Below the pieces are notes generated by a model, which saw nothing but the letters and a program-made list of their open reading frames with translations, searched no databases and had not been told where the DNA came from. Both the position numbers and the translations under genes were made by a program. Source: Phragmites australis (taxonomy: Eukaryota > Streptophyta > Magnoliopsida > Poales > Poaceae). From it: 64,000 bases of DNA. Position 1 is the first letter of the stretch. The number at the start of each line of letters is the position of its first letter. The stretch is from positions 5,869,501 through 5,933,500 of the forward strand of contig NC_084932.1 of the NCBI RefSeq assembly GCF_958298935.1. The letters are read 5' to 3'. Of this stretch, positions 3,242-62,621 are shown piece by piece.

Positions 3242-3555
3242 CATATCATGCTGTTTAGTGAGTTGTTATACATTTCCTTGAGCATCCTTGAGCTAGTGAA
3301 AGTGCTCCCGACATATTTATGTATGTGTTACATATAGAGATAGTTACAAGGTAAGATTCAAATGTGTGCCTTATATTGATTTTGCATAGCAAAATCTGAC
3401 TAAGTCAAACATCTAGAAGTATTTACAAATGCACTTGAATCTTACCTCTCAACTATCTCTATATGCAACACATATATAAATGTGTGGGGGAGCACTTTCA
3501 CTAGCTCAAGGATGCTCAATGAAATGTATAACAACTCACTAAACAGCATGATATG
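3242..3555. repeat. foldback MITE-like inverted repeat, about 314 bp
   Basis: The left arm starts CATATCATGCTGTTT at 3242 and its complement AAACAGCATGATATG ends at 3555. The arms match over about 125 bp each (3242-3367 and 3431-3555) with a short loop between. There is no coding capacity. The target duplication is not clear, so the superfamily is unassigned. Confidence 0.75.
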
Positions 3556-10208: not shown

Positions 10209-11753
10209 TTATAAAAAAAAATTCGATGACTCCTGGTTGCCGCTGTCCGTGTTGGGGCAGGCCTCAGTGACGATCTTCTTCGTCGTTTCGAGAACATTCA
10301 TCTTTTGCTTCTTTGAGCGCTTCATGTTTTTCTTGGCCTCACGCAGGGTTCACGTTACCGACCGGAGGTCGGTTACCGACCTCCGGCGGTAACCGAAAAA
10401 CCGCGATAACCGCGATTACCGGTCAAAAATTCAAAAAAATTCGGAGAAAATTCATTCGGCAAATTTTAAATTTTTGCGAAAAAATCATGTTTTTGCCCTC
10501 TCGGTAACCGAGCGGTTTGGGTCGGTTACCGAGCGATTTTCTCGCATTTTGGATTCGGTCGGTTACCGAGCGGTTTGGCTCGGTAACCGCTCGGTTTTCT
10601 CGATTTATCGAGCGGTTTTATCGAATTTCAGCGCAGTTCAACAAAAAACCTAAAAAAGGGTTCAATTTTGTAAAATCAATAACTAATTCATCCGAGCTTC
10701 AAATCAAGTGAAACAAATTTTGTTGGCTTCCTTGTAACATGATCTACATGATAAAAGTATTTATACTCATAAAAAAGTTCAAAATTTTCTGTGAGAAATT
10801 TTATTTGTTAAACCAAGGTAAATGCATAGTTTACTCTTTGCTAATCCAAAAATCATGAAACTAATTTTGTTAGTCTTCTTACATGATCCTATATCTTTTA
10901 AAAATATATGAACTCATGAATTAGTTATTGTAACATGCATGATTGTGTAAATGTGTTGCGACTAGATTAATTCATAACTGACCCATCACACCTTAAAAAT
11001 TAGTGAAACCACTTTCATTAGCTTATTTATATTATGATTTACGTAGAAAAAATAATAGTAGACATGAAAAAATTAATTAAAGTGATGTTTCTTAACATAT
11101 TCACTTTATGCTTGTGAACTTTGTAAAAATCATAGAGAATTTAATAAAACTCTAAATAAAGTGAAATCAATTTTAAAGGTTCTCTTAAAATACGTTTTAT
11201 ACAAGAAAAATATGTGTTTGCATGTTACACTTTTCCTTAACGTGAGTTAATAATTGAGCCGCACGCTTCAATTTTTTTCATTTTTTTCAAACTTTCTCCC
11301 TATAGAATATGATGCAAACGACATTATTTTTGAAAACTTTTTTCACAGAAGTTCTTAGAATTGTGTCTAGTTTTTTTTAAGATTTTTTTTGAATTTTTTT
11401 TGAATTTTTTTATTTTTTCGAATTTTTTGAATTCAAATTTCGGTTACCGAACGGTTTTTGAAATCGGACCGGACCGGGAAGGTCGGTAACCGCGATTTTT
11501 GAGCGGTTACCGACGGTTTTTTGAACCCTGGCCTCACGGCGCTTCCTCTTCAGCCCCTTCAGCTTGTTCGATAAACTCATATTTCCAATCTTTCAGAGCC
11601 AAAGCCATGAAACATGAATCAGATGCAAAAAAAAAACAAGTTTCTAACACTCACAATTACTGCAAAAACATGATAGTTACTACGAACCTGCTGGTCTGGA
11701 ATGTAGAGCTTGCCCTGCTTGCCCCGCACCGGGTCATTCATGACATTTTTCAT
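10209..11753 (-). pseudogene. lysine-rich protein gene disrupted by a hAT insertion
   Basis: An exon at 11753-11688 reads MKNVMNDPVRGKQGKLYIPD and ends at a GTTCGT donor; a TTTTGCAG acceptor precedes it, so more exons lie upstream. The next exon starts near 11589 after GAAAG and continues in phase as a basic K/R-rich stretch (SNKLKGLKRKRREAKKNMKR). It is split by the hAT element at 10344-11530. Removing the element and one target copy restores a continuous frame to a TAA at 10209, directly followed by an AATAAA-like signal on the minus strand. The Lys/Arg clusters suggest a nuclear or nucleolar protein, but no family was recognised. Without excision the product is broken. Confidence 0.5.
10344..11530. 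mobile_element. non-autonomous hAT element, copy 1 (1,187 bp)
   Basis: The ends are CAGGGTTCA and TGAACCCTG, flanked by a perfect 8-bp duplication gcctcacg (10336-10343, 11531-11538), diagnostic of hAT. Both subterminal zones carry many CGGTTACCG/CGGTAACCG palindromes (about 10355-10620 and 11440-11520). The AT-rich core has no transposase. The copy at 58353-59537 has nearly the same length and the same core in reverse orientation. Confidence 0.92.
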
Positions 11754-13159: not shown

Positions 13160-13530
13160 CTGTCGGTGATATGGGATCCGGGGGTTCCCGAGTCCCGAGG
13201 CCAGAGCAGCACAGTGCCACATGGCGCATTCCCTCGGGGACCATCTCCCCGAGGGCCCAAGGGAAAAGCAAGGTCCGGGAGTGGGTGCTCGGGGCCGAGA
13301 ACAGTTGGTCCCCAGGTACCTAGAGAGCTCCGAGGACCCAAGGGAAGCAAAGTCCGGGAGTGGGTGCTCGGGGCAAAGAACAGTTGGTCCCCGAGTACCC
13401 AGAGAGCCCCGAGGACTCGAGGGAAGCAAGGTCCTGGAGTGAGTGCTCGGGGCCAAAAACAGCTGATCCCCGAGTACCCAGAGAGCCCTGAGCACCCGGC
13501 AAGCCCCATGCCGGTGGACCCCGCAGAGGC
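13160..13530 (+). repeat. LTR fragment with a three-copy 80-bp tandem repeat
   Basis: It begins TGTCGGTGATATGGGATCC, a plausible TG start of a grass Gypsy-type LTR. Three copies of a roughly 80-bp unit follow (13271, 13351, 13429), each with GTCCGGGAGTGGGTGCTCGG-like and CCCCGAGTACCCAGAGAGCC-like blocks. A related array in the opposite orientation lies at 60591-60985. Long frames on both strands here come from the repeat length being near a multiple of three or from lack of stops in GC-rich DNA, not from a protein. Confidence 0.65.
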
Positions 13531-16865: not shown

Positions 16866-16985
16866 CATATTTAGCCGCCAAAGCCCAGAGAACAGAAACC
16901 CTAAACCTAGCAACGCGAGCAGTAAACCTACGGGGATAAGGAGGAAGAGGAGGAGGAGGAGGAGGAGCGTGGTTTCAGCGACCGC

Positions 16986-18098
16986 ATGCGCACGTCCGTC
17001 CCCTTCCTCTCTCTCCACGAGGTCCCTGATGACCTCGCCGACTGCGACGGCTCGTGCTGCCCCGGCGGCGGGCTGTGCTGCCCGGACGACCCGCTCGACG
17101 CCGTCATGCGGTACCTCCCGGTCGTTGACGACGCGTTGCTGGAGGCGCTCGGGATAGGAGGCTCGCCGCCGCGTTCCGGGGGGCGCGGCCACGACGATGC
17201 CGTGCTGGAGGATGCGCTGGACGCGGGCGCCTGCATGGTGGATGCCGCGGCGAGCGAAAGAGGCGGCGTCGGGGAGCAAGACATGCGCGGGTTGTCCCGT
17301 GGCGTCCCGGAGGTCCATGATGAGGTCGTCGACGTCGACATGTTTTTTGAAGGCGGCGCGCCAGATGACGGCAGCTGCGGCGGCGGTGACTCGAACCTGT
17401 GCAATAGCATGTCCTGCCACACGCCGCTTACCTCGGCGTTGCCGGCGGGTGGTCTGGACGCGCGCGGCACGGTGGACGGCTTTGTCTCTGACGCCGCGCT
17501 GTCAGCCAGGCCGTTGACAACGTCCAGCACGTCATCGGGCAGCCTCTCATCGACGACCTGGGAGACCGAGTCGCCGGCGCCTGTCTCCTTACCCGGCGCC
17601 TGGGTTTGGCCAAGGAAACAGCGGCACCAACCAGTCATTCGCCGTAACCAGTCCTGGTTGGCGAAGCCCCGGCTCGACGATGTGCCGGACGCACCTCACG
17701 ACAGTCCCACCAGCCACAAGAGTGGCAATGACGCCCGTATACGCCGCCGGAGCCCTGAGCCGCGTAAGAGGAATAGGCCGGCCCAGAGGGTGTGCAGTCA
17801 TTGCCACTCCTCGGACACGCCGCAGTGGCGCGCAGGTCCGCGAGGTCGGGGCACTCTCTGCAACGCATGCGGCATCCGCTACAAGAACCAAAGGTTACTG
17901 CCAGAGTATCGACCGTCGACGAGCCCTAGCTTCCGGAGCGGCGAGCACTCCAACCGCCACAGGAAGGTCGTAAAGCTCAGGGAGCAGAAGGCGAAGGAGG
18001 AAATCCTGAAAATGATGGCCGATACTGTGCCGGCGCCGCCGAAGAACCGCGGGGGTGGTGAGTTCATGGATGTGTGCACGTACATATCAACAGGCTAG
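16986..18098 (+). CDS. GATA-type zinc-finger transcription factor
   Basis: This 370-residue single-exon ORF has one C-terminal GATA finger, C270-x2-C273-x18-C292-x2-C295. It carries TPQWRAGP, TLCNACGIRYK and the basic tail RLLPEYRPSTSPSF, as in plant subfamily I (x18) GATA factors that bind WGATAR sites in nuclear DNA. Residues 1-60 are rich in Cys, Gly and Asp. The middle is acidic and Ser-rich (possible activation region), and a basic patch (RIRRRSPEPRKRNRPAQR) just before the finger could act as a nuclear signal. After the finger comes a K/R/E-rich helix (RKVVKLREQKAKEE). The start ATG is the first in a long open frame after a CT-rich leader. No breaks are seen; codon use is strongly GC3, as in many grass genes. 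Specific role unknown; plant relatives act in light, nitrogen or growth responses. Confidence 0.93.
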   Translation: MRTSVPFLSLHEVPDDLADCDGSCCPGGGLCCPDDPLDAVMRYLPVVDDALLEALGIGGSPPRSGGRGHDDAVLEDALDAGACMVDAAASERGGVGEQDMRGLSRGVPEVHDEVVDVDMFFEGGAPDDGSCGGGDSNLCNSMSCHTPLTSALPAGGLDARGTVDGFVSDAALSARPLTTSSTSSGSLSSTTWETESPAPVSLPGAWVWPRKQRHQPVIRRNQSWLAKPRLDDVPDAPHDSPTSHKSGNDARIRRRSPEPRKRNRPAQRVCSHCHSSDTPQWRAGPRGRGTLCNACGIRYKNQRLLPEYRPSTSPSFRSGEHSNRHRKVVKLREQKAKEEILKMMADTVPAPPKNRGGGEFMDVCTYISTG

Positions 18099-26375: not shown

Positions 26376-26380
26376 AGGAC

Positions 26381-26799
26381 TGTTAGTTGTAATCATGTTG
26401 CCTGTATGAGTTGTGTTTGCATGTGTAGTTAGGTCTTGGATGTGAGCTCCCGAAGAATCGGTCAGGCCAAGCCAACGTGCAAGAGGTGGGAGTGATTAGT
26501 GGTTGCATTAGTTGTTAGACTGTTCGCACGTTCGAGTAGTGGCCGCAGGACTCGGATGTGGGATGGCATGTTTTGAGTTCACAGCAGATGAGTTAGGCTA
26601 ACTGCCCATGTAATACTTGCATCGTTTGTCTATTTAAAGGAGAATACAAGAAAAGGCTGCAAGCGAGTCGAGAGCAGCACCAAAAATCCATTTGTTCCAC
26701 TGTTTATCTCCTTCCTTGGGTTCCTGTGTGAGTTGGTGATCGGGTGATAGCATGAGTGAGTTATCTCTAGGAGAGGGGCTGTGCGATGCAGCTCCAACA
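26381..26799 (+). repeat. 5' LTR of the short retrotransposon
   Basis: 419 bp, TG...CA. It contains TATTTAAA (26631-26638), a likely TATA box, and the ATG (26752) that opens the internal ORF. It pairs with the LTR at 27688-28105. Confidence 0.93.
26631..26638 (+). promoter_or_regulatory. probable LTR TATA box
   Basis: TATTTAAA, conserved in both LTRs, lies about 115 bases before the LTR-encoded ATG. Confidence 0.6.
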
Positions 26800-27303
26800 A
26801 TTGGTATTCAGAGCCTCAAGATTCAACGGCCGAGGTGCTGCTGTCGGGAGCTTGCACGTCCATGGTGCGGTGGAGGATCTGCACGGTGGAGCTGCAGTCG
26901 AGGCGTTGTGGAGGCACGGAGGCTCAGCGCGTTGTGGTGGGCGCAGAGGCGAGGAGGCCATGGAGGCGCTGCGTGGAGGCGCGGAGGCCACAGTGTTGGA
27001 CGTCCTGAGGGGCATCCACCTTGGTTCTTCGATTCAGTCCTTGACAACTACTGCTCGAACGTCAGGGAGGTCATCAAGGGGGTGCGGCGCGAGGTGCTGC
27101 GCGGCTGCATGGTGGCATTCAGCCGAGTGATCCCCCTCGAGGTTTGCACCGAGGAGCACCCCGTGTGGAGGTTCACCCAGCGGCTCATTACCATCTGTGC
27201 CATGGATGTCAATGCAACGGTCGCCCATGTCGTCGCGCTGGATCCAGGGACTGAGAAGGCGGTGCAGGCGATCCACATTGAAGAATTAATATGTCAAGAT
27301 TAG
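26752..27303 (+). CDS. LTR-initiated chimeric ORF with BRCT-like segment of a CTD-phosphatase homolog
   Basis: This 183-codon ORF starts in the 5' LTR (MSELSLGEGLCDAAP), reads through the primer-binding site (TIGIQSLK) and an Arg/Gly/Trp-rich spacer. Near residue 95 it enters a segment reading VLDNYCSNVREVIKGVRREV, LRGCMVAFSRVIPLE, HPVWRFTQRL, CAMDVNATVAHVVALDPGTE. The RGC..FSRV, HP.W and THVV..D.GTEK-like positions match the BRCT domain after the catalytic FCPH domain in FCP1/CPL-type RNA polymerase II CTD phosphatases. The catalytic DxDxT domain is absent and the BRCT end is missing. If expressed, the product would be a BRCT decoy-like peptide; that is inference. No intron is visible in the captured part, which would fit capture through RNA. 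Confidence 0.6.
   Translation: MSELSLGEGLCDAAPTIGIQSLKIQRPRCCCRELARPWCGGGSARWSCSRGVVEARRLSALWWAQRRGGHGGAAWRRGGHSVGRPEGHPPWFFDSVLDNYCSNVREVIKGVRREVLRGCMVAFSRVIPLEVCTEEHPVWRFTQRLITICAMDVNATVAHVVALDPGTEKAVQAIHIEELICQD
26802..26814 (+). other. primer-binding site (tRNA-Met type, one-base insertion)
   Basis: TGGTATTCAGAGC lies two bases after the 5' LTR. It differs from the usual plant initiator-tRNA-Met complement TGGTATCAGAGC by one extra T. Confidence 0.85.
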
Positions 27304-27672
27304 GGGTAATCTTGACAGGTAGTATTTGCATGCTGGTTAAATGTGTTTACTAGCATGTAGTGGTACGGGTGCATGTGTTGCATGCTCAGTTAGTGTATCC
27401 ATGACCGAGCGAGTAAAGATCATGATGTGCCTAGTCGTCGCATGCGTCAAGCTAGCTGCTAGGTGGGCTCGGTGGTAGACTGAGTTAGAATACGTGTGGC
27501 ATGGCATAGTGCCTAGATCGGCAGTGAGTAGAGAGCGGATCGGCAGGCAGGAGGTGAGTGCACGTATGTGTCATTTGGAGATAGCCATGCATGTGTTTGA
27601 GGCCTCTTGTCGAGCTGAGTAGAGGAGCTCCGTCCGAATATTGGCATCATCTAGGTCAAGTTAGGGCATCAT
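27304..27672 (+). other. internal non-coding part of the short retrotransposon
   Basis: Sequence between the ORF and the polypurine tract. It has GCATG-rich stretches and no domain. Confidence 0.5.
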
Positions 27673-27687
27673 AATTAGGGGGTGATT
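27673..27687 (+). other. polypurine tract
   Basis: AATTAGGGGGTGATT directly precedes the 3' LTR, the expected site of plus-strand priming. Confidence 0.75.
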
Positions 27688-28105
27688 TGTTAGTTATAAT
27701 CATGTTGCCCGTATGAGTTGTGTTTGCATGTGTAGTCAGGTCTTGGATGTGAGCTCCCGAAGAATCGGTCTGGCCTAGCCAACGTGCAAGAGGTGGAGTG
27801 ATTAGTGGTTGCATTAGTTGCTAGCCTGTTCGCACGTTCGATTAGTGGTCGCAGGACTTGGACGTGGGATGGCACGTTTTGAGTTCGTGGCTGATGAGTT
27901 GGGCTAACTGCCCATGTAATACTTGCATCATTTGTCTATTTAAAGGAGAATACATGAAAAGGCTGCAAGCGAGTCCAAAGTAGCACCAAAAATCCATCTG
28001 TTCCATTGTTCATCTTCTTCCTCGGGTTCCTGTCTGAGTTGGTGATCGGGTGATACCATGAGCGAGTTATCTCTAGGAGAGAGGCTGCGCAATGCAACTC
28101 GAACA
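27688..28105 (+). repeat. 3' LTR of the short retrotransposon
   Basis: 418 bp, TGTTAGTTATAATC to CTCGAACA. It differs from the 5' LTR at roughly 35 positions by eye. The same ATG (28058) is kept and opens a chance frame into flanking DNA. Confidence 0.92.
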
Positions 28106-28110
28106 AGGAC

Positions 28111-28639: not shown

Positions 28640-31600
28640 TTTTTTTAAGGTATTACACCCTGAAAGGGCAGTTCATTCATAAGCATGAAACATTACAAGG
28701 TTTAGTCTATCGAGGCCAAGTACATAATTTTTCTTTCAGGGGGCAACTATTGTAATTGTTGTAATTAGAACAATTAAAACTAGGGTTGCCAAAGTCTATT
28801 GAAGAGGCATTTCTAGCTAAACCATCCACAATGCAATTGTCTTCTTTTGGAATATGATAAAAGTTTAGATTGGTCATTCTTGTGATTTCCTCCATGTCCT
28901 TGATTGTGTGCCTTACTATCCAATGTGGGATGACATCTTGGGGATTTTTCAAACATGAAATAAGGCACAAGTTGTCTGAGAGAAAATCACATTCTTGAAC
29001 CTGTAATTTATCTATAACAAAGAAGCCGAGAAACAGACTCAAAGCTTCTGCATGTAAACAAGATTCAGCTTGTGATGTCTTGCTTGAATTTGTAAGGTCC
29101 ATCGAATTTGGTCTCCTTGAGTAAGTTATTTGAATACCAAGACCAACCTCCCTTCCTGCATTAAAAGAAGCATCCGATCTACAACAACAAATTGATCTGG
29201 AAAAAGATTGCAGACCAAGATGATTCAAGTTTGAAGATTCATGGATGGAGTCTTCACATATTTGCTCAATGTCGTAGGCATCATATTGAGCCTTTTGAGC
29301 TGCCTTTGCCTGAAAGATTACAGAGTGAATAGAACAATCTTTATTGTAAAATATATGAGCATTCATCGCCTTCCAAATAAACCAGAGAATGTAATAGATG
29401 AGATCTTTATCATTTAGATTTTTTAGGCAACTGAAAATAAAATGCAGAATATTTGAGCAAGAGCCAAAATGTTATGTGATTTGATAGCAAAAGGAGAAGC
29501 AAACTAAACGGCTACTGCAAAAGAGCAATGGAAGAAGATGTGCTCATCGTTTTCAACGGAATGACATCGAGAACAATTAGGAAAAACATTCTTAATTCTT
29601 CTATGAACTCGTTGCGCATTCGCAATGTTTTTAGTCATGACCCTCCAAACAAAAATTTGAACTCTTGGTAGGATATTTTTATTCTTCCAGATAAAATCAA
29701 TAATAATCTTTGTTTGATTTGACCTATTTAGTTTGGTTACTGTTTTTTAATGTTCTCTTGATGAAGAAGCTTGTAAGCACTTTGTGCTGTCCATATACCT
29801 TTCTTATTTGGCTTCCAAATTAAAATGTCTTGACCTCCAACTTGAAAAAGAGGAATCTGCATAAGCTGATTAACAAATTCAACATCAAAAATAGAAGAAA
29901 GCAAATGCTCATTCCATCTTTTTGGATTGGAAAGCCACAAATCTGCAACTTTGACTGGAAGACTAAGGCTCAAAGCTTCTTGATTAATGTGTCCATGAAT
30001 GTTTTCCCAATCTGGACACCAGGGCTGATTCCAAATCAAAATATTACCATCAAAGAGTTGTCATTGAACAGCCTTGGAGAGAATGTTTCTTACGTTGAGG
30101 ATAGAGTCCCAAGTCTAGGATTTGGAGCTTTGATTGCTCACTCTCCAGTAAGATGAAGTAGGGAAATACTTGCCTTTCATAATTTCGGACCATAGTGCTT
30201 CTGGAATGTTGAGCATCCTCCAAGCTAAACCTGTAATCAGAGCTATGTTCAAGGTTATTAAATCTCTAAAACTAAGCCCACCCTTTCCTTTAGGGATGTA
30301 GAAGTTTTCCCAAGCTGTGAGGCAGAGAGGCTTTTTATTATTGTCTGAATAATTGCCTTTCCACCAAAAATGTCTGATGATTGCAGCGAGCTCATCTTTT
30401 AAAGATTTTGGAAGAATAACATGGGACATGTAATATATAGGAATAGAAGAAAACACAGATTTAATAAGAGTGGAACGACCAGCATGAGAAATCATATTGG
30501 CTTTACAATCATTAAATTTAGACTTGAAATTGTTTTTAAGGAAAGCATAGACCTTAGATTTAGAAATATGAGCTGTAAACAGGGGATGACAAAGGTGAGT
30601 GAAGTTATGATCCATATTGGTGACCTGAAAAAGATTCTTAATATTATCATGCAGATCATAAGGGGTGTTAATATTGAAAGGAATAGAAGATTTATTCCAA
30701 TAAGGCATTTGACCTGATTATTTACAAATTTTTTCTAAAATATCTTTGATTACTTGAGCTTCATGCGTGGTAGCTTGACAACATATGATAACATCATCTG
30801 CAAACAACAGAGAATGAATGGAAGGAGCCTCGTGAGCCAGACTAACACCTGATATTCTGTTATTTGCCACCACATCTCTCAACCTGCAAGTCAGTTAATT
30901 AATAGCAATGATGAAAAGTAGGGAGAGAGAGGACATCCTTGTCGTATTCCCCTGGAGCTTCTGAATCTTCCAAAGGGTTGGCCATTAATAACAATAGAGA
31001 AAATATGCCATTCAACGCAGACTGCAACTATGTCAATAAAACATTCATTGAAACCAAGGCGACGCATGGCAAACTTAATAAAATTCCACTCAAGTTTGTC
31101 GAAAGCTTTAGCCAAATCTAACTTTAGCATAAAAGCCTTGATGTCCCATTTCTTAAGATGAAAGGAATGAATGATTTCATGGGTTATAATAATATTCTCT
31201 GAGATTCTTCGCCCTTTGACAAAAGCATATTGGGAATTGATGATATAATTAGGTAAGAAAGGTTGCTTTTTTAAAGCTAGGGATTTAGCAATAATTTTGT
31301 AAATAACATTACACAAACTTATAGGCCTATAGTCTAAAGGAGTGGAGCAGATAGGTTTTTTGGGATAAGAACAATATTAGTTTTCTTCAGACCAGCAGGT
31401 AAAGATTTATTCAATAAAAGGATCTTACCAAATTATGAACATCATCACCTATCCAGCTCCATGTGGATATGTAAAAAGTGACATTAAAGCCATCAAGCCC
31501 TGGAACTGCATTCCCTCTCATTGACTTAAGGATGCCATAAATTTCCTCTTTAGTTGGAGCAGCTATAAGAGAATCTTCTTGCATTTCCCCTCTCAAGGTT

Positions 31601-32750
31601 ATTTCGTGTGTTTCTTCGTAATCTTGCAAGGAAGAGGTGAACATGTCTTCAAAATAGTTTATGAAGCATGCTGCAATATCTTTATTTGTATTGATCGTAA
31701 GACCATCAGAATTGGTTATGAAGTTGATCCTTTTTTCCCTTCTTCTTTTGATCATGTTGCTGTGAAAGAAGGAAGTATTCCTATCTCCTTGGGCGATCCA
31801 CTTTTTTTTGCATCTCTGCGTGTAATATTCAGTGATCTTGCTTTGAATGTGAGCATGCTTACTGGATAATTCATCTTCTAAAGCATGATTTTCATAACTA
31901 GGAGGAAGAGCTTGCAAATTAGCAATGTTATCCTCGGTTTGTTTAAACTGATCATTAACCGAATGTTTATTCCTCCTAGACCATTTGACAAGATTATAAC
32001 CTAATAGCTTGCTCTTTTATGAAAATGGAGGTAATCATACCTGTTCCAAGTACCCTTGCTCACCTTTTGGAAATCTTTCTCAAGAAGCCACCAGTTTTCA
32101 AATTTAAAATTCCTTTTCCTTCTTACGTTGCTAGAGAAAGGAATGGCTAAAATAGGAGCATGATCCCCATAGATGAGTGGGAGATGATAAACATTTGTGT
32201 TTGGAAAAAGGCTGCACCAAGCTACATTTGCAAGGCATCTATCTAGTCTTTGAAAGGTAGGTTTAGAAGAGAAACGCTTGTTAGTCTAAGTATAAGCAGG
32301 TCTATTATAGCCCAGATCAATAAGACCACAATTATTAATAATACTACAAAGAAGAAATACGATTAATATTAGGAAGAGTATCACTTAACTTCTCATTGGC
32401 ATTAAGGAGCTCATTAAGGCCTCCATACAGAAGAGGGGGCTATTATCTACACTCACAAAAGCTGCCATATCAGCCTAAATATTATCAGTTTTTACATGAT
32501 AAGGATCCCCATACAGACAAACAAGCCTAAAATTAATATTAGCCTGATTAACACTAACATTGGCTAGAATATAGTTAGGATTAGATTTGGCTACTTAAAT
32601 ATCAACATCTTCAGTCCACAAAAGCCACAAACCACCAGAGATACCTTCAGCAGGGATGATATAACTATCATGAAAAGAAAAGTTTTTAATTAGATCATTA
32701 GGAGAGAATTTATTAGTTTTAACTTCTGATATAAATGTTACCTTCGCATT

Positions 32751-32883
32751 GCGGACGGACATGAAGCCCAGTGGCAAGACTCGATAGGACGAGTCGAACC
32801 AGCAGGGGCTCAAGCCCCCGTCCCCCACCCTCTGGCCTTCAAAGAAGGCCGCACAGTGGGGAGATGCTAATAAAAAAAAAAGA
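32751..32883 (+). mobile_element. SINE inserted in the LINE endonuclease
   Basis: A 133-bp insertion ending in a 10-base A run is flanked by a perfect 13-bp duplication ttaccttcgcatt (32738-32750, 32884-32896). TGGCAAGACTCG may be the A box and GGGCTCAAGCCC the B box of a tRNA-like head; a GGCCTTCAAAGAAGGCC hairpin lies in the body. It has no coding capacity, and its family was not identified. Confidence 0.88.
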
Positions 32884-32982
32884 TTACCTTCGCATTAGTA
32901 GAATATATAAGCCATCTAAGGTGGCTCATTTTAGAATTGCGAAGGGAGCCACCAACCCCTCGGTAGTTCCAGGATAGAAGAT

Positions 32983-32986
32983 TCAT
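32983..32986 (-). promoter_or_regulatory. ATGA overlap of LINE ORF1 stop and ORF2 start
   Basis: The ORF1 TGA and ORF2 ATG share two bases (CCATGAATC on the minus strand), a layout that permits termination-reinitiation. Confidence 0.75.
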
Positions 32987-34845
32987 GGCGCCTGTGGCGC
33001 CTTAAGGGCTGGCACCATTGCCCCGTCAGCAGAAGTTGCATCAGTTGAGGGAACTCCTTGAACAACGGGCATAACATGACCTTGATCATCACTATGGCTT
33101 GGATCCGGAGGCTCACAGCCACTGGCAACAGAGGTGCCCAATCCAGTCTGGGAGCAACCACCTTCAACTTGAGCATGGTGGAGATGTTTGCCGTCATCAC
33201 CGCCACTGGCCTCTCGGTCCCACCGACTAATGTGACTTTCATTGCGTCTTCTTGACCTCCGGTTGGGATCTTGAGAGTTTTGTATAGAGGGAAACATGTG
33301 AGACGGTGAAGAGATCAGAGGAGAAGAAGGGCAAGGGGATAATGACTTTGATGGGTGGAGGAGAGAAGGGCCGGTGAGTTTCTTAGATGCAGGCATCAGA
33401 AGAGGGGATCCTTGTCTTTTATAGGATTGATTAGAGGCTGAAATTAGTGGATTTCCCCTGGAAGTACGATGAAGGGATCTAGTTTTCTTGTAAAGATTGT
33501 TCCGCTGTGGGATCTGAAAAGCTTCCTGATTAAAATTGAATATGCTATCCATAGATGCAGAGGAAGGGGAGTGATATTGAATGTTATCACCTGCAGGGGA
33601 GGTAGAGCTTTGTTGTTGATGTGGTGGGGTAGCAGCCTCGGGAGGGGGAAGAGCATGCACATGGCTAGGAGCAATCATCTCTTGTTCCTGACAATTAGAG
33701 TTCTGCAGGTTCATCTGCTGCTGCCCCTGTTGATTGGGAAGAAAGGGATTATGGAATTGCCATTGCCTATTCTGGGTCTGCAACTGTTGGGCCTGAAAAT
33801 TGAAAACTCCAATAGCTGCTTGAGAGGGCCTTTGCCCTGGCATATTCTGGTGTCCTTGTGTTCCATGGCCCATCTGAGAATGCACAGGTGAAGAGCAAGG
33901 AATATTCCTTCCCACTTCAATTTCCCGCTCTTTCACTCCAAATTGCCTTTGCTCGGTTCCTTGAGGAAACTGCCAGTTACTTCCCACTGTTCCTTGCATT
34001 GTGGAATTTCCTGAAAAGCCTAATAAACTTGTCGATTTTTGGAAGAAATCTCTGAAGTATTTTTGAATTTCTTGCTCCTGAGTTCTCCATCGACCATAGA
34101 CTTCTTCAGGAACTTTAGCAGCTTCATTTGGACTTAGTTTCCAAATAATTTGTTGTCTCTGGAGGCAGCTTCAAACATTGTGAAAAAGATGATCACAGAA
34201 ATTGCAGATCTTAATCAATTTCTCATAATGTACATAGACCTTGATCTTCTTTTCTTTTGAAATACTGATCATGACACTATCAAGAACCTGCTTGCTTGCA
34301 TCTAAAATGACCCAAGCTATCATATACTCAGGAATTCTAAACATTAAGCTTTCTGTGAAGACTACGGAGATATCCTTGATTTCGATTTTCTCAATTATCT
34401 TATCAACTAGATCAATGGAACGCAAAGATTTGGGAATACCATATAGATGAATTGTGACCGGAAGATACCTGAAAGTATAAGATTCCATTGGTCTTCCTCC
34501 CCTTGGATCAATCCACTCCACCAGCATAGTCTCTCTTTCAGCTATCCATGGTTGCCTTTGCCAAACAGATTGGGAATAATCTGTGTCACCTTGTAGAATC
34601 TGCAACCCCAGGCAGACCTCATTGCCTTCTCAAACATGAATAGAGTGACATTCCTCGAAACAGGACCATTTGGAGGACTTACTTTGGATAGAAGATTGAA
34701 AGGAGTTTGGATTTGTTCTTGGTTTTGATCTTCGAAATCAATCTGAACCTCCTATTTGTGAGAGGTTGATGCTTTGGAAGTTGAAATCTAGATCTTCAGA
34801 GAGGTTGAATGGATTTGACGGTGGAAAGCCTGGTTCTAGAACCAT
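32983..34845 (-). pseudogene. LINE ORF1: nucleic-acid-binding protein
   Basis: A start near 34845 (MVLEPGFPPSNPFNLSED) is followed by a disturbed frame. Open sequence resumes at 34605 with a DUF4283-like fold region (VTIHLYGIPKSLRSIDLVDK) and a zinc knuckle near 34185-34160. There C-x2-C-x4-H-x4-C spacing is kept but one spacer codon is TGA. The same frame continues into a 330-residue Gln/Pro/Ser-rich tail (32983-33999). Its TGA stop overlaps the ORF2 ATG. The protein would coat LINE RNA. Broken by the internal TGA and by frameshifts near the N-terminus. Confidence 0.75.
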
Positions 34846-38022: not shown

Positions 38023-38940
38023 TCACACAATGCTATAGGGATGGCACATATCAAGCTCTCCCCTAAAAAAGGCAAACCTTGTTACATCTAGAGGCTTGGT
38101 AAAGATATCGGCTAGCCGGTTTTGGGTATCTATGTAGCTCAACTCAATGTCTTCCTTCTCATTATGGTCTCTCAGGAAGTGGAATCTCACATTTATATGT
38201 TTGGTTCTAGAGTGTTGAACTGGGTTATTGGCTAAACTTATGGCACTGGTGTTGTCACACAAAAGTGGCACACTCCTGAAATCTAACCCAAAATCTCTCA
38301 AGGTAGCAACCATCCATAAAATCTGAATAAGTAAGAAATCATTTCCATGCCTAGCTACTGGTGTAAAGGTCTCTCCAAAGTCTATCCCCTCTACCTGAGT
38401 GAAACTCTGAGCTACTAGTCTAGCCTTGTTTCTTACTATAGACCCATCCTCCCCTTGTTTGTTTTTGAAAACCCATTTGATGCCTATGGTGTGAACATTT
38501 GGGGGTAGCTCTACTATGACCCAAACTTAGTTTCTCTCAAAGTTTTCAAGCTCTTCATGCATAGCATTGACCCAACTCGAATCAGATAAAGTATATCCAA
38601 CATCATACGGCTCAAAGGAAGCAAAAAATATAGAATCAGTGAAATGGGCATGAGAAGCAGATTTTGACCTAGTTACCTCTCACCAAGGTCACCGATCATC
38701 AGCTGTGGGGGATGTCACCACTGAATGTGTTGAGGGGCTTCGCGCTGCGAGATGACCTCCCCCTCAAACACTACTGGTGTAGGCTCGAAAGTAGCTGAGG
38801 TGGAAGTAGAGCCTGCAGGACTCTCTGCCGGTGTCAAGGAAGCAGGAACCAGCTCGAGAGCGAGTGTAGTAGTAAGAAGTAGTGGATCATCCTCGTCATC
38901 CCCGAAAGGTGGAATAGACGATTCGAGTCTTCAAGTGAGC
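38023..38940 (-). pseudogene. Copia pol 3' part: RT start joined to RNase H, RT core deleted
   Basis: Reading down the minus strand: a Ser/Pro/Glu-rich hinge, then WVIVELPPNVHTIGIKWVFK, GEDGSIVRNKARLVAQSFTQ and EGIDFGETFTPVAR, the beginning of the Copia reverse transcriptase. Immediately after comes ILWMVATLRDFGLDF and RNase H motifs LCDNTSAISLANNPVQHSRT, KHINVRFHFLRDH, RLADIFTKPL. The catalytic YVDD block and palm are missing between 38345 and 38315, a clean internal deletion. Several stops are also present. Non-functional. Confidence 0.8.
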
Positions 38941-57950: not shown

Positions 57951-58352
57951 CGCATTATCTTGTTGCTACCTTGTATATTTGTATTATAAGGTTGAAAACA
58001 GCTTTCAGAAAACCAGTGGTCACTTGCAAGCTGGCTACTGGTTGGTAATCTGGCATGGATATCCTGACAAGTTGTACTGAAATTTTTCCTTGTTTAATCT
58101 GTGCGATTCTTTGCATGTAGGCTCGTGTGGAAGACATAAGTTTAAACCGAGGCAGTTAGTTTCTTGGGCGCATGAAACTTCAATAGTTTACTGCATTTAA
58201 AAAAATATTGTATGAAATAGTCTAATGCCTTTGTTTTTTTTTTAAAGGAACAGTCTACTGCTTAAGCAAGGTCATTCAGATTTGACAAAAGAGGGAGGCA
58301 TATATACCAGAGGCAATGCATTCTTCAGCACCTGATGACTTCGAGTCATGGT

Positions 58353-59537
58353 CAGGGTAAACAAATTCATCGGTTACCATTTGAAATTCGTGGTAACTGA
58401 TTCTATCGCTCCGCTCCGATAATATAAACCGACCGGTTACCGAATTTGAATTGAAAAAATTCAAAAAAAGAAAAAAATCATAAAAAAACTAGAGATAAAT
58501 CTAAGAACTTATGTGAATTTTTTTTTTCAAAAATAATATCATTTGCATCATATTCTATAGGGAGGAAGTTTGAAAAAAAAAGAAAAAAATTTGAAGCGTG
58601 CAGCTCATTTATTAACTCATGTTAAGGAAAAGCTTAACATGCAAACACATATTTTTCTTGTGTAGTGCGTATCTTAGGAGTATCTTTAAAATTGGTTTCA
58701 CTTCATTTAGACTTTTATTAATTTCTCCATAATTTTTAAAATGTTCAGAAGCATGAAGTGAATATGTTAAGAAACAGTATTGTAATTAACTTTTTCCTGT
58801 CTACCATTATTTTTCCTATATAAAGCATAGTATAAGTAAACTAATAAAAGTGGATTCACTAATTTCGGAGGTGTGATGGGTTACGTATGAATTAATCTAA
58901 TTGCAATATATTTACATAATCCTGCATATTACAATAACTATTCCATAAATTCATGTATTTTTAAAAGACATATGATCATGTAAGAAAACTAACAAAATTG
59001 GTTTCATGAACTTTGGATTAGCAAAGAGTAAACTATGCATTTAACTTGGTTTAGCAAATACATTTTCTCACAGAAGATATTCAACTTTTTTATGAGTATA
59101 AATACTTTTATCATGTACATCATGTTACGAGGAAACCAACAAAATTTGTTTCACTTGATTTGAATCTTAGATGAATTAGTTATTGATTTTACAAGGTTGA
59201 GCCATTTTTTTTGGTTTTTTTAACTTCACTAAAATTCGAGAAAACCGCTCGATAAATCGCTAAATGCGGTCGGTAACCGGTGCAAAATGATCGGTTACCA
59301 AAAATGCAGAAAATGCAGAAAATCTGGTCGATAAATCCTAAATGCTATTAGTAACCGGTGCAAATCGACCGGTTACCGTTCGGTCAATTTAGTTCTAATT
59401 CTCGCCGAATTTCAAATTTGACCGAGTGAATTTTGAGCGAATTCTCACCGAATTTTGTCCAATTATCACGGTTACCACGATTTCCCAGTAACCGTTGGCG
59501 GCTGATTTTCATTGGCAAAACGAATTTGTAAACTTTG
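58353..59537. mobile_element. non-autonomous hAT element, copy 2 (1,185 bp, inverted)
   Basis: The ends CAGGGTAAACAAATTC and GAATTTGTAAACTTTG form a TIR, flanked by a perfect 8-bp duplication gtcatggt (58345-58352, 59538-59545). Subterminal GGTTACC/GGTAACC repeats and a core reading as the reverse complement of the element at 10344 (for example AAGTGAAACAAATTTTGTTG near 10707 and its complement near 59140) show it is the same family. No transposase. Confidence 0.9.
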
Positions 59538-59709: not shown

Positions 59710-61005
59710 TGTCGGAGGATAAACTCCTCAAGCGGGGATCCTGAGGGACCCCCTTTGAGATTCGGCCAGGGGATGATTCTGAATCTACCTCGTACGTGAA
59801 ATTAATGAGAGTATATGAGATGTAGGCATGACGGATGATCGGATGCTAGAGGGAGTAAATGCTCGAGAGATTTTTAGACAGGTTCGGGCCGCACGAAGCA
59901 TAATACCCTACTCCTGTGTGTATGCTATAAATGCTCTCGGAATGCCTTTCTCTGGATCTCTTGTGTTACAAGGTTTTCTGTCTAGGTCTAGAGCTTCGGT
60001 CTTGGTGAACCTCTGCTTGGCTTCTCAGACTTGTGCTTGAGCTTCAGCTTTGGTCTTCTAAGACATCCGTTGAACATGTTCTTCTCCGGGGTGTACTCCC
60101 CCTTTTATCCTGTCAGGGAGGCTTGGTGTGCCCAGAAAGGAGGGCACGAGTCCTCATGAGCCATAAATGGAAAGCAACCATCGTAGGGCTGCAGTTTAAT
60201 GTTACGGGGGTTGAAAGTGCGTCCCCAACCGGTCCTGTCGCCCATCATGCCACCTTTTAGCGGGTGCAGCAGGGGGGCCCACCGGGCAGCCACCGAGCAA
60301 CCCCACGTGCCCGCTCGGTCAGAGCAGGCTTGACACAGCAAGGCGGCAAGCGATATGCCTCGAGCCCAACGACGATATCTCCGAGCCGCGCAGGATGACG
60401 TGCGATGGGACCCGTCACATTAAATATCCTCACGCCTCCCTGCCAAGCGGTGGCAGGGGCTGACACCAGGCATGGGGGGAGTGGTTAGAAGTGACAGGCC
60501 ATGCTCCCTCTTAAATGCAGCATCGGGCCTCTCACCAATTGACACCTCACCGCTGACCCCTTGTGGGTTCCACCGGCAAGGGGCTTCTCAGGTCCTCGGG
60601 GAACTCTGGGTGCTCGGGGACCACTGTTTATAGCCCCGAGCACTCTCTCCCGGATACGTCTCTTCTCGGTCCTCGGGGAACTCAGGTACTCAGGGACCAC
60701 TGTTCATAGCCCCGAGCACCCTCTCCCGGAACTGTGTCTTCTCGGGTCCTCGAGGAACTCGGGTACTCAGGGACCACTGTACATGGCCCCAAGCGCCCTT
60801 TCCCGGAACTGTCTTCTCGGGTCCTCGGGGAACTCGGGTACTCAGGGATCATTGTTTATGGCCCCGAGCGCCCTCTCCCAGAACTGTCTTCTCGGATCCT
60901 TGGGGAACTCAAGTACTCGGGGACCACTGTTCATGGCCCCGAGCACACCTCCCGAAACTGGGTCTTCTCGGACCTCGGGGAAATAGTCCCCGAGGGATGG
61001 CATCA
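59710..61005. repeat. Gypsy-type LTR or LTR-flank with tandem array
   Basis: It begins TGTCGGAGGATAAACTCCTC and contains GAGAGATTTTTAGACAGGTT followed by CGGGCCGC, wording common in grass Gypsy elements, then a GC-rich part with a 75-78-bp tandem array. It joins the Copia pol sequence at about 61005. The 3' terminus and target duplication were not found. Confidence 0.55.
60591..60985 (-). repeat. 75-78-bp tandem repeat, five copies
   Basis: Units start at 60591, 60668, 60744, 60820 and 60895, each with GGTCCTCGGGGAACTCGGGT, CAGGGACCACTGTTCATGGC, CCCGAGCGCCCTCTCCCGGA and GTCTTCTCG. Read on the minus strand it matches the style of the array at 13271-13510. The frames across it (for example 60561-60986) are repeat by-products. 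Confidence 0.8.
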
Positions 61006-61301: not shown

Positions 61302-62621
61302 CTACATCATCCAAATTTTCTTGCTCTTCTTGAGAGCCATTAGTCTCATCAAATTCAACATCATGTGTCTCTTCAACCAAACCAGATTGTAGACACAATA
61401 AGCTTTACTATTAGAAGAATAACCAAGTAAGAAACCCCCATCACATTTTCTTTGGAATTTTAATAAACAAGTACCTTTCTTGAGAATATAGCATTTGCAT
61501 CCAAACACCCGAAAATATGAAATATTTGGCTTTCTTCCAATAAGAAGTTCATATGGAGTCTTCTTCAATAGATGATGACAATATAATCTATTGGATGAAT
61601 GGCAAGCGGTATTAATAGCTTCGGCCCAAAATTTGTTCAAAACTTTATATTCTGAAAGCATTGATCTTGCCATATTAATAAGAGTCTGATTCTTTCTTTC
61701 AACTACTCCATTTTGCTCTGGAGTGTATTTTGTCGAGAATTCATGTTTGATACCCTTTTCATCACAAAAATCTTCAACCTTTGTGTTCTTGAATTCGGAG
61801 CCATTATCATTTCTCACTTTTTTTATCTTGAACTCAAACTCATTTTCGGCCATTTTTGCAAAACTTTTGAAAGTATTAAATACAATAGTCTTATCATGCA
61901 AAAAGAATACCCAAGTGTATTTAGAGAAATCATCAACAATGACAAGACAATAGCTATTATCTCTAATACTTATATATGTAGTAGGACAAAATAAATCCAT
62001 GTGTAATAATTCCAATGGTCTTGAAGTTGACATGGAGTTTTTGTAAGGATGTGAATTTTCCACTTGCTTTCTGCCTTGACAAACACTACATAGCTTGTTC
62101 TTCTCAAATTTCACATCTTTCAATCCAACTACAAGATCATACTTCAACAAACGATTTAGTTGATTCATACCAACATAACCAAGCCTTCTATGCCAAAGCC
62201 ATCCTTTCGATGTCTTTGTGAACAAACATGTACTAAGGCTTGCATCATTAGAAGAAAAATCAACTAGGTAGAGATTACCATATCTAAAACCTTTGCAAAC
62301 AACACTATTAACCTTAATGCTAGATATGATCACAACATTTTGAGAAAAAGTGCATGTAAAATCAAGATCACATAATTAAGCAACGGATAACAAATTAAAA
62401 TTCAAGGATTCAACTAGCAAGACATTTGAGATAAACAAATCATTTGAGATAGCAATTTTACCTAACCCTTTTACCTTTCTTTTGCTATTATCTCCAAATG
62501 TTATTTTGTTATACTCCGATCCATCATTGCTCATAAAAGAGAACATCCTTTGATTTTTGGTCATGTGTTGAGTGCATCCACTATCTAGCACCCAATGTCC
62601 TCCACTGGACTTATAGTTCAC
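61302..62621 (-). pseudogene. Copia pol: protease, GAG-pre-integrase and integrase
   Basis: The protease segment reads HWVLDSGCTQHMT (active Asp in DSGC). GAG-pre-integrase has WHRRLGYVGMNQLNRLLK with H and the C-x2-C of LCSVCQGRK. The integrase core has DLFCPTT (first Asp), then VIVDDFSKYTWVFFL, NDNGSEFKN (second Asp) and PEQNGVVERKNQTLINMARS (Glu). A stop separates protease from the integrase frame near 62370, and the frame decays after VFGCKCYILKKG. The enzyme would insert the element cDNA; here it is not expected to work. Confidence 0.85.

What the first reader, a model, noticed from the sequence alone, without database searches (positions are those of the whole stretch)
26381..28105. Short LTR retrotransposon carrying a BRCT-like fragment of a CTD-phosphatase gene
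Seen directly: paired LTRs, perfect 5-bp TSD aggac, PBS, PPT, total 1,725 bp, and no gag/pol. The 888-bp interior holds an ORF matching the BRCT part of FCP1/CPL-like RNA polymerase II CTD phosphatases. Host-gene transduction by LTR elements is known (maize Bs1 is the standard example) but rare. A TRIM-sized, structurally complete carrier with a recognisable regulatory-domain fragment deserves follow-up.
Basis: partly seen in the sequence, partly recalled or inferred. Interest (0 to 1): 0.9.

Follow-up and report, generated by a model that had tools for sequence, protein, structure and literature searches.

The report
Small retrotransposon carrying CPL4 gene fragment
A short grass retrotransposon, with both of its long terminal repeats but no recognisable enzyme genes of its own, carries a broken 284-base piece matching a gene for an RNA polymerase II tail phosphatase (CPL4), likely copied in from the gene's messenger RNA; it is a clear new example of a kind of gene capture already known in plants.

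Summary
Window 26381-28105 is an LTR retrotransposon insertion: LTRs of 419 and 418 bp (91.4% alike), 5-bp flanks AGGAC, a near-canonical primer binding site, a polypurine tract, an 888-bp interior and no recognisable gag or pol. Window 27025-27261 encodes 79 residues alignable without gaps to the BRCT region of grass CPL4 proteins (up to 71% identity). The match continues upstream to about 26978 in another frame, so a one-base frameshift breaks the captured piece, and it stops before the BRCT domain ends. A tree puts it in a CPL4 paralogue group of grasses, on a long branch. It breaks 15 of 63 conserved positions (0-11 of 63-66 in 21 host proteins), which reads as decay rather than maintained function. 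That divergence exceeds what a roughly 3.5-My-old insertion explains, so the capture likely predates the insertion, unless the donor is an unsampled divergent paralogue. Gene capture by LTR elements, small ones included, is well documented: a new member of a known kind. At 1,725 bp it misses the published size limit for TRIMs. Other copies and host introns could not be checked: the genome search did not complete (13 calls).

The parts
26376..26380 (.). target site duplication AGGAC, left copy
26381..26799 (+). 5' LTR, 419 bp, TGTTAG...CAACA
26631..26639 (+). TATTTAAAG, TATA-box-like motif in the 5' LTR (function inferred)
   Evidence: the same motif lies at 27937 in the 3' LTR
26752..27303 (+). 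ORF from an ATG inside the 5' LTR to a TAG, 183 codons; its last part holds the BRCT-like stretch; expression untested
26802..26814 (+). primer binding site TGGTATTCAGAGC, one T more than the canonical TGGTATCAGAGC
   Evidence: canonical site in PMC7215508 and PMC3977881 (passages)
26815..26977 (+). GC-rich 5' interior of unknown origin
   Evidence: GC 0.64 for 26800-26977 against 0.47 in the LTRs; no Pfam family in the frames over it
26978..27261 (+). captured fragment of a CPL4-like gene, about 95 codons, with a one-base frameshift near 27025
27025..27261 (+). in-frame BRCT-region stretch, 79 codons, no gaps and no stops
27262..27676 (+). 3' interior, AT-richer, no similarity to the next residues of CPL4
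27292..27317 (+). perfect 11-bp stem with a GGGG loop just after the captured piece
   Evidence: folding z-score -3.16 for 27270-27340, 0 of 200 shuffles as stable
27677..27685 (+). polypurine tract AGGGGGTGA, 2 bases before the 3' LTR
27688..28105 (+). 3' LTR, 418 bp
28106..28110 (.). target site duplication AGGAC, right copy

Best explanation
This is a 1,725-bp LTR retrotransposon insertion with no recognisable gag or pol, whose interior carries a frameshifted, truncated 284-bp fragment matching the BRCT region of grass CPL4 (RNA polymerase II CTD phosphatase) proteins, likely acquired by template switching onto CPL4 mRNA during reverse transcription and likely moved by the proteins of an autonomous, probably Copia-type, relative. 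Shown: the LTR pair, target site duplication, PBS-like site, PPT, the interior without recognisable gag or pol, the CPL4 similarity, the frameshift and where the similarity stops. Inferred: LTR-driven transcription, packaging in particles of a partner element, priming by initiator tRNA-Met (recalled as the match of this PBS), and RNA-level capture. Also inferred: the capture happened before this insertion, because the fragment differs from its nearest host proteins by more than the age of the LTRs explains. The fragment most likely does nothing as protein; it is a decaying passenger.
For: LTRs, TSD and interior. 60 of 60 collected CPL proteins match the same frame of the element by tblastn at E<=0.01 (composition correction off), best 71% over 79 residues; the 60 were collected as relatives of the ORF or of its first hit, so they are not independent. 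The upstream extension across the frameshift, tried with 10 of the 60 hosts, beats dinucleotide shuffles: 0 of 2000 as good with nine hosts, 1 of 2000 with the tenth; no downstream extension with any of the 10. Tree of 45 of the 60 proteins plus the element: inside a grass CPL4 paralogue group supported 100/98. Fcp1 is the best PDB match by sequence and by Foldseek. Decay: 15 of 63 conserved columns broken, against 0-11 of 63-66 in 21 host rows. Neutral change since insertion alone (0.045 per site) gives a mean 8.8% amino-acid difference, 0 of 3000 simulations reaching 30%; the element differs by 32% from its best host over 95 residues.
Against: No second copy has been seen, so movement after capture is inferred. 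Host intron positions are unknown here, so RNA-level capture is not shown. The PBS has an extra T. No partner element with these LTRs is in the window: they match only each other. The in-frame 79 codons hold no stop; simulated neutral decay of the 95 codons gives a stop in 22% of runs at 0.045 and 62% at 0.20 changes per site, so openness fits decay without proving it. The 32% includes the host's own divergence, and the donor could be an unsampled, fast-evolving CPL4 paralogue, which would explain the divergence without an old capture. One host row, P0028, breaks 11 of 63 conserved columns, not far from the element's 15.
Confidence: 0.75

Rival explanations
1. The fragment entered at DNA level: recombination, a nested insertion, or filler DNA during break repair placed CPL4 exon sequence between the LTRs; no reverse transcription of CPL4 mRNA was involved.
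For: The captured stretch is short (284 bp) and could fit in one exon; nothing here shows a spliced junction.
Against: The element is otherwise tidy, with both LTRs and the flanking duplication. The TRIM captures surveyed in PMC4717578 held exons only (passages), which favours RNA.
Confidence: 0.15
2. The element transcribes and translates the LTR-started ORF (26752-27303) into a short protein whose partial BRCT fold competes with host CPL4, or its transcripts feed small RNAs against CPL4.
For: The ORF runs 183 codons from an ATG downstream of a TATA-like motif in the LTR. The AlphaFold2 model has pLDDT near 90 over the BRCT part, and Foldseek finds Fcp1 first. Only 2.6% of 500 shuffles of 26800-27303 hold a run of 167 or more open codons.
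Against: The captured frame is broken upstream, the last part of the BRCT domain is missing, and 15 of 63 conserved columns are lost. The model used an alignment of 41 host proteins, most of them full-length; mean pLDDT is 62.3 and residues 1-84 are below 50; TM-scores to Fcp1 are 0.33-0.36 by query length. No expression data.
Confidence: 0.07
3. The similarity is chance, or an ordinary retrotransposon protein resembles CPL4.
For: The ORF itself scores no Pfam family at E<=1.
Against: E=8.4e-27 in a search of 5.8 billion proteins, both hits CPL-like (the second carries the phosphatase domain PF03031); 79 residues without a gap at 71% identity.
Confidence: 0.01

Closest known systems
Maize Bs1
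   Same: LTR retrotransposon with segments of cellular genes in its interior and no full-length host ORF (PMC13317346, passages).
   Different: Bs1 took segments of three host genes that were joined into a transcribed and translated chimeric gene (same passages); here one gene is recognised, the piece is frameshifted, and expression is untested.
Soybean GmaRetroS15 and other TRIMs with gene fragments
   Same: Small, no retrotransposon proteins, 5-bp target duplications, exon fragments in the interior (PMC4717578, passages).
   Different: Those measure 1,172-1,449 bp and come from soybean and Medicago; this one is 1,725 bp with LTRs of about 419 bp in a grass. Copy number here is unknown.
LTR-captured genes of rice and sorghum
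   Same: Host genes inside full-length LTR elements of grasses (PMC3726574, abstract and section 6).
   Different: The four example elements in section 6 are 9.9-15.8 kb; this is a small element with a partial domain.
SMART / FRetro129 of grasses
   Same: Small non-autonomous grass LTR element whose movement is thought to need a partner element (PMC3281118, passages).
   Different: FRetro129 is 292 bp with 85-bp repeats and codes for no predicted protein; this one is about six times longer and holds a gene fragment.

Membership tests
LTR retrotransposon | paired direct LTRs with TG...CA ends | tested here: met
   TGTTAG...AACA, 91.4% identical over 420 columns
LTR retrotransposon | short target site duplication | tested here: met
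   AGGAC on both sides
LTR retrotransposon | tRNA primer binding site after the 5' LTR | tested here: inconclusive
   TGGTATTCAGAGC, one extra T against TGGTATCAGAGC
LTR retrotransposon | polypurine tract before the 3' LTR | tested here: met
   AGGGGGTGA at 27677-27685
TRIM (criteria of PMC4717578) | element shorter than 1,500 bp | tested here: not met
   1,725 bp; criterion
TRIM (criteria of PMC4717578) | no retrotransposon proteins | tested here: met
   19 interior frames of 40 aa or more scanned against Pfam; 2 sub-cut-off hits, neither a retrotransposon family
[quoted passage not shown]
   none in the window beyond its own LTRs; genome search unanswered in 13 tries
Copia superfamily | order of pol domains or RT phylogeny of an autonomous partner | not testable with these tools
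   no pol in the element; genome search unanswered
LTR element with captured host gene (Bs1 type) | interior sequence homologous to a cellular gene | tested here: met
LTR element with captured host gene (Bs1 type) | introns of the donor gene absent | not testable with these tools
   only host proteins, no host DNA, were available
FCP1/CPL4 CTD phosphatase | NIF-type phosphatase domain | tested here: not met
   NIF found in 40 of 42 members of alignment A2, not in the element ORF
FCP1/CPL4 CTD phosphatase | complete BRCT domain | tested here: not met
   similarity stops at the TEKA motif, before the last part of the host domain; no downstream match with any of 10 hosts tried; no Pfam BRCT hit in the ORF, against 39-41 of the other 41 members

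The most novel reading that the evidence does not exclude
The element belongs to a grass retrotransposon family that has carried a CPL4 BRCT fragment through many rounds of copying, and its LTR-started ORF or its small RNAs act on CPL4, letting the element influence the phosphatase that resets RNA polymerase II.
Probability: 0.05. Interest if true: 0.7.

Novelty: new member of a known kind. Interest (0 to 1): 0.27.

Why it matters
It adds a clean, datable case in a grass of a small LTR element without gag or pol that carries part of a regulatory gene. None of the seven gene-carrying TRIM subfamilies reported in PMC4717578 is from a grass (one Medicago, six soybean; passages). If other copies carry the fragment, the family would let one time capture against insertion and measure how fast a captured fragment decays. 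On present evidence the fragment is a passenger, so the wider consequence is small.

Tried and rejected
Chance similarity: rejected. Ordinary gag or pol in the interior: none in 19 frames; two sub-cut-off Pfam hits (DHODB_Fe-S_bind E=0.6, Bin2_C E=0.028) were taken as noise. A second captured gene in the GC-rich 5' interior: no Pfam family in the frames over it; its origin stays open. A longer upstream capture: 6 of 8 frame-aware host alignments ran on to 26943, but only with a second frameshift, and two of ten anchored extensions ran 21 rather than 16 codons; I claim only 26978. An apparent match of three proteins (two from Oryza, one unnamed) from element position 462 was not kept: for the one tested again (P0056), the frame-aware alignment began at 26976. 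Intact BRCT: rejected, truncated and frameshifted. Other copies in the window: none. Species: the window's GATA protein has a 100% match whose source is withheld; the nearest named one is Phragmites australis at 68%, so only 'a PACMAD grass, perhaps near Phragmites' is inferred. Paper search for retrotransposon + CTD phosphatase-like + BRCT + captured: 0 papers, so this capture was not found in that library by that search.

Full report
Observation. The 5' LTR is 26381-26799 and the 3' LTR 27688-28105; they match each other and nothing else in the 64-kb window at E<=1e-3. They differ by 25 transitions and 10 transversions over 418 columns, K2P 0.090, which at 1.3e-8 changes per site and year (a rate recalled from rice work) gives about 3.5 million years. 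AGGAC flanks both ends. The interior is 888 bp, with a PBS-like TGGTATTCAGAGC that has one T more than the TGGTATCAGAGC of PMC7215508 and PMC3977881 (passages), and a polypurine tract AGGGGGTGA two bases before the 3' LTR.

What the interior holds. All 19 stop-to-stop frames of 40 aa or more that overlap the interior were scanned against Pfam: 3 at E<=1, 6 and 10 at E<=0.1. Two touched a family, both well under its cut-off and neither from a retrotransposon (E=0.6 and 0.028). The ORF 26740-27303 matches fission yeast Fcp1 at E=0.0016 and two grass CPL-like proteins at E=8.4e-27 and 2.2e-23, the only two hits among 225 candidates at E<=0.01. A second search, with the first of these as query, brought 58 further CPL proteins. 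All 60 match the same frame of the element at E<=0.01, composition correction off; the best, from Stipagrostis hirtigluma, is 71% identical over 79 residues without a gap, window 27025-27261. The 60 are not an independent test, since they were collected as relatives.

The captured piece is longer than its open frame. The frame-aware alignment to the Stipagrostis protein continues upstream for 16 codons to 26978 after a one-base shift near 27025; 6 of the 8 hosts aligned ran on to 26943 with a second shift, which I do not claim. Anchored extension scores, tried with 10 of the 60 hosts, beat dinucleotide shuffles of the upstream interior: 0 of 2000 shuffles as good for nine, 1 of 2000 for the tenth. 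Downstream nothing continues: best scores 0 to 4, matched by 592 to 2000 of 2000 shuffles. So the fragment starts before the BRCT domain, crosses a frameshift and stops before the domain ends.

Origin. In a tree of 45 of the 60 host proteins and the element, the element falls in a grass CPL4 paralogue group (33 rows, support 100/98), apart from the group with most of the Oryza and the Pooideae proteins. Within it the element sits at a weakly supported fork (84/74) with Stipagrostis, Aristida, a long Oryza rufipogon row and three rows without an organism name. Its branch is 0.4 changes per column against a median end branch of 0.07, and the tree program warns that the place of a long row is unsure. 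[quoted passage not shown]

Decay or function. Of 21 host rows chosen from the same group, each breaks 0 to 11 of its 63-66 conserved columns; the element breaks 15 of 63. In the remaining, variable columns it has a residue not seen in the others at 5 of 32, the hosts at 0 to 4 of 29-32. Simulated neutral change since insertion (0.045 per site) gives 8.8% amino-acid difference on average and never 30% in 3000 runs, while the element differs by 32% from its best host, a figure that includes the host's own change. Either the capture is older than this insertion, with copies in between, or the donor is an unsampled divergent paralogue. The 183-codon ORF from the LTR ATG stays open, and AlphaFold2 gives its BRCT part pLDDT near 90 with Fcp1 as best PDB match at TM-scores of 0.33-0.36 by query length; but that model leaned on an alignment of host proteins, mean pLDDT is 62.3, and residues 1-84 are below 50. 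I read the fragment as a passenger.

Mechanism. The element has the cis signals of LTR retrotransposition and no recognisable enzymes, so it would need a partner's proteins; PMC3281118 argues the same for the small grass element FRetro129 (passages). Capture likely came through template switching onto CPL4 mRNA; PMC13317346 reviews abnormal template switching as a way new sequence enters LTR elements (passages). Exon-only content, which PMC4717578 reports for TRIM captures (passages), could not be tested, because no host DNA was in reach.

Known or new. LTR elements carrying host genes are well documented: Bs1 and an Arabidopsis TRIM (PMC13317346, passages), 672 genes in rice and 1,343 in sorghum (PMC3726574, abstract; section 6 of the same paper attaches 1,343 to rice), and 30 TRIM elements in seven subfamilies (PMC4717578, passages). 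This element is a new member of that kind. It is not a TRIM by the size criterion of PMC4717578. A search for papers holding retrotransposon, CTD phosphatase-like, BRCT and captured found none.

Limits. The genome of the window was never searchable, so copy number, solo LTRs, the donor gene and its introns are unknown. The host is a PACMAD grass by inference from a GATA gene in the window, whose nearest named relative is from Phragmites australis at 68%.

Noticed in passing
27292-27317: Perfect 11-bp inverted repeat with a GGGG loop directly after the captured fragment; the ORF's stop codon lies at the edge of the loop. Folding z-score -3.16 for 27270-27340. Purpose unknown.
   Followed up: partly
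26815-26977: GC-rich 5' interior of the element, 64% GC for 26800-26977 against 47% in the LTRs, possibly a second captured piece; no Pfam match.
   Followed up: partly
16926-18098: GATA-type transcription factor gene; nearest named relative Phragmites australis, 68% identity.
   Followed up: partly
28707-34629, minus strand: Broken LINE-like element with RVT_3, RVT_1 and a sub-cut-off DUF4283 match, about 600 bp from the retrotransposon.
   Followed up: partly
61302-62375 and 38023-38526, minus strand: Copia-type remnants: integrase with GAG-pre-integrase, and RVT_2.
   Followed up: no
13247-13497 and 60584-60982: Tandem arrays of 79-bp and 75-bp units that are related to each other in inverted orientation, 47 kb apart.
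   Followed up: no
10526-11533 and 58350-59334: An inverted pair of about 1 kb, 81% identical; possibly two copies of one mobile element.
   Followed up: no
3242-3555: A stretch of about 314 bp that matches its own reverse complement at 83%, a fold-back element by its look.
   Followed up: no
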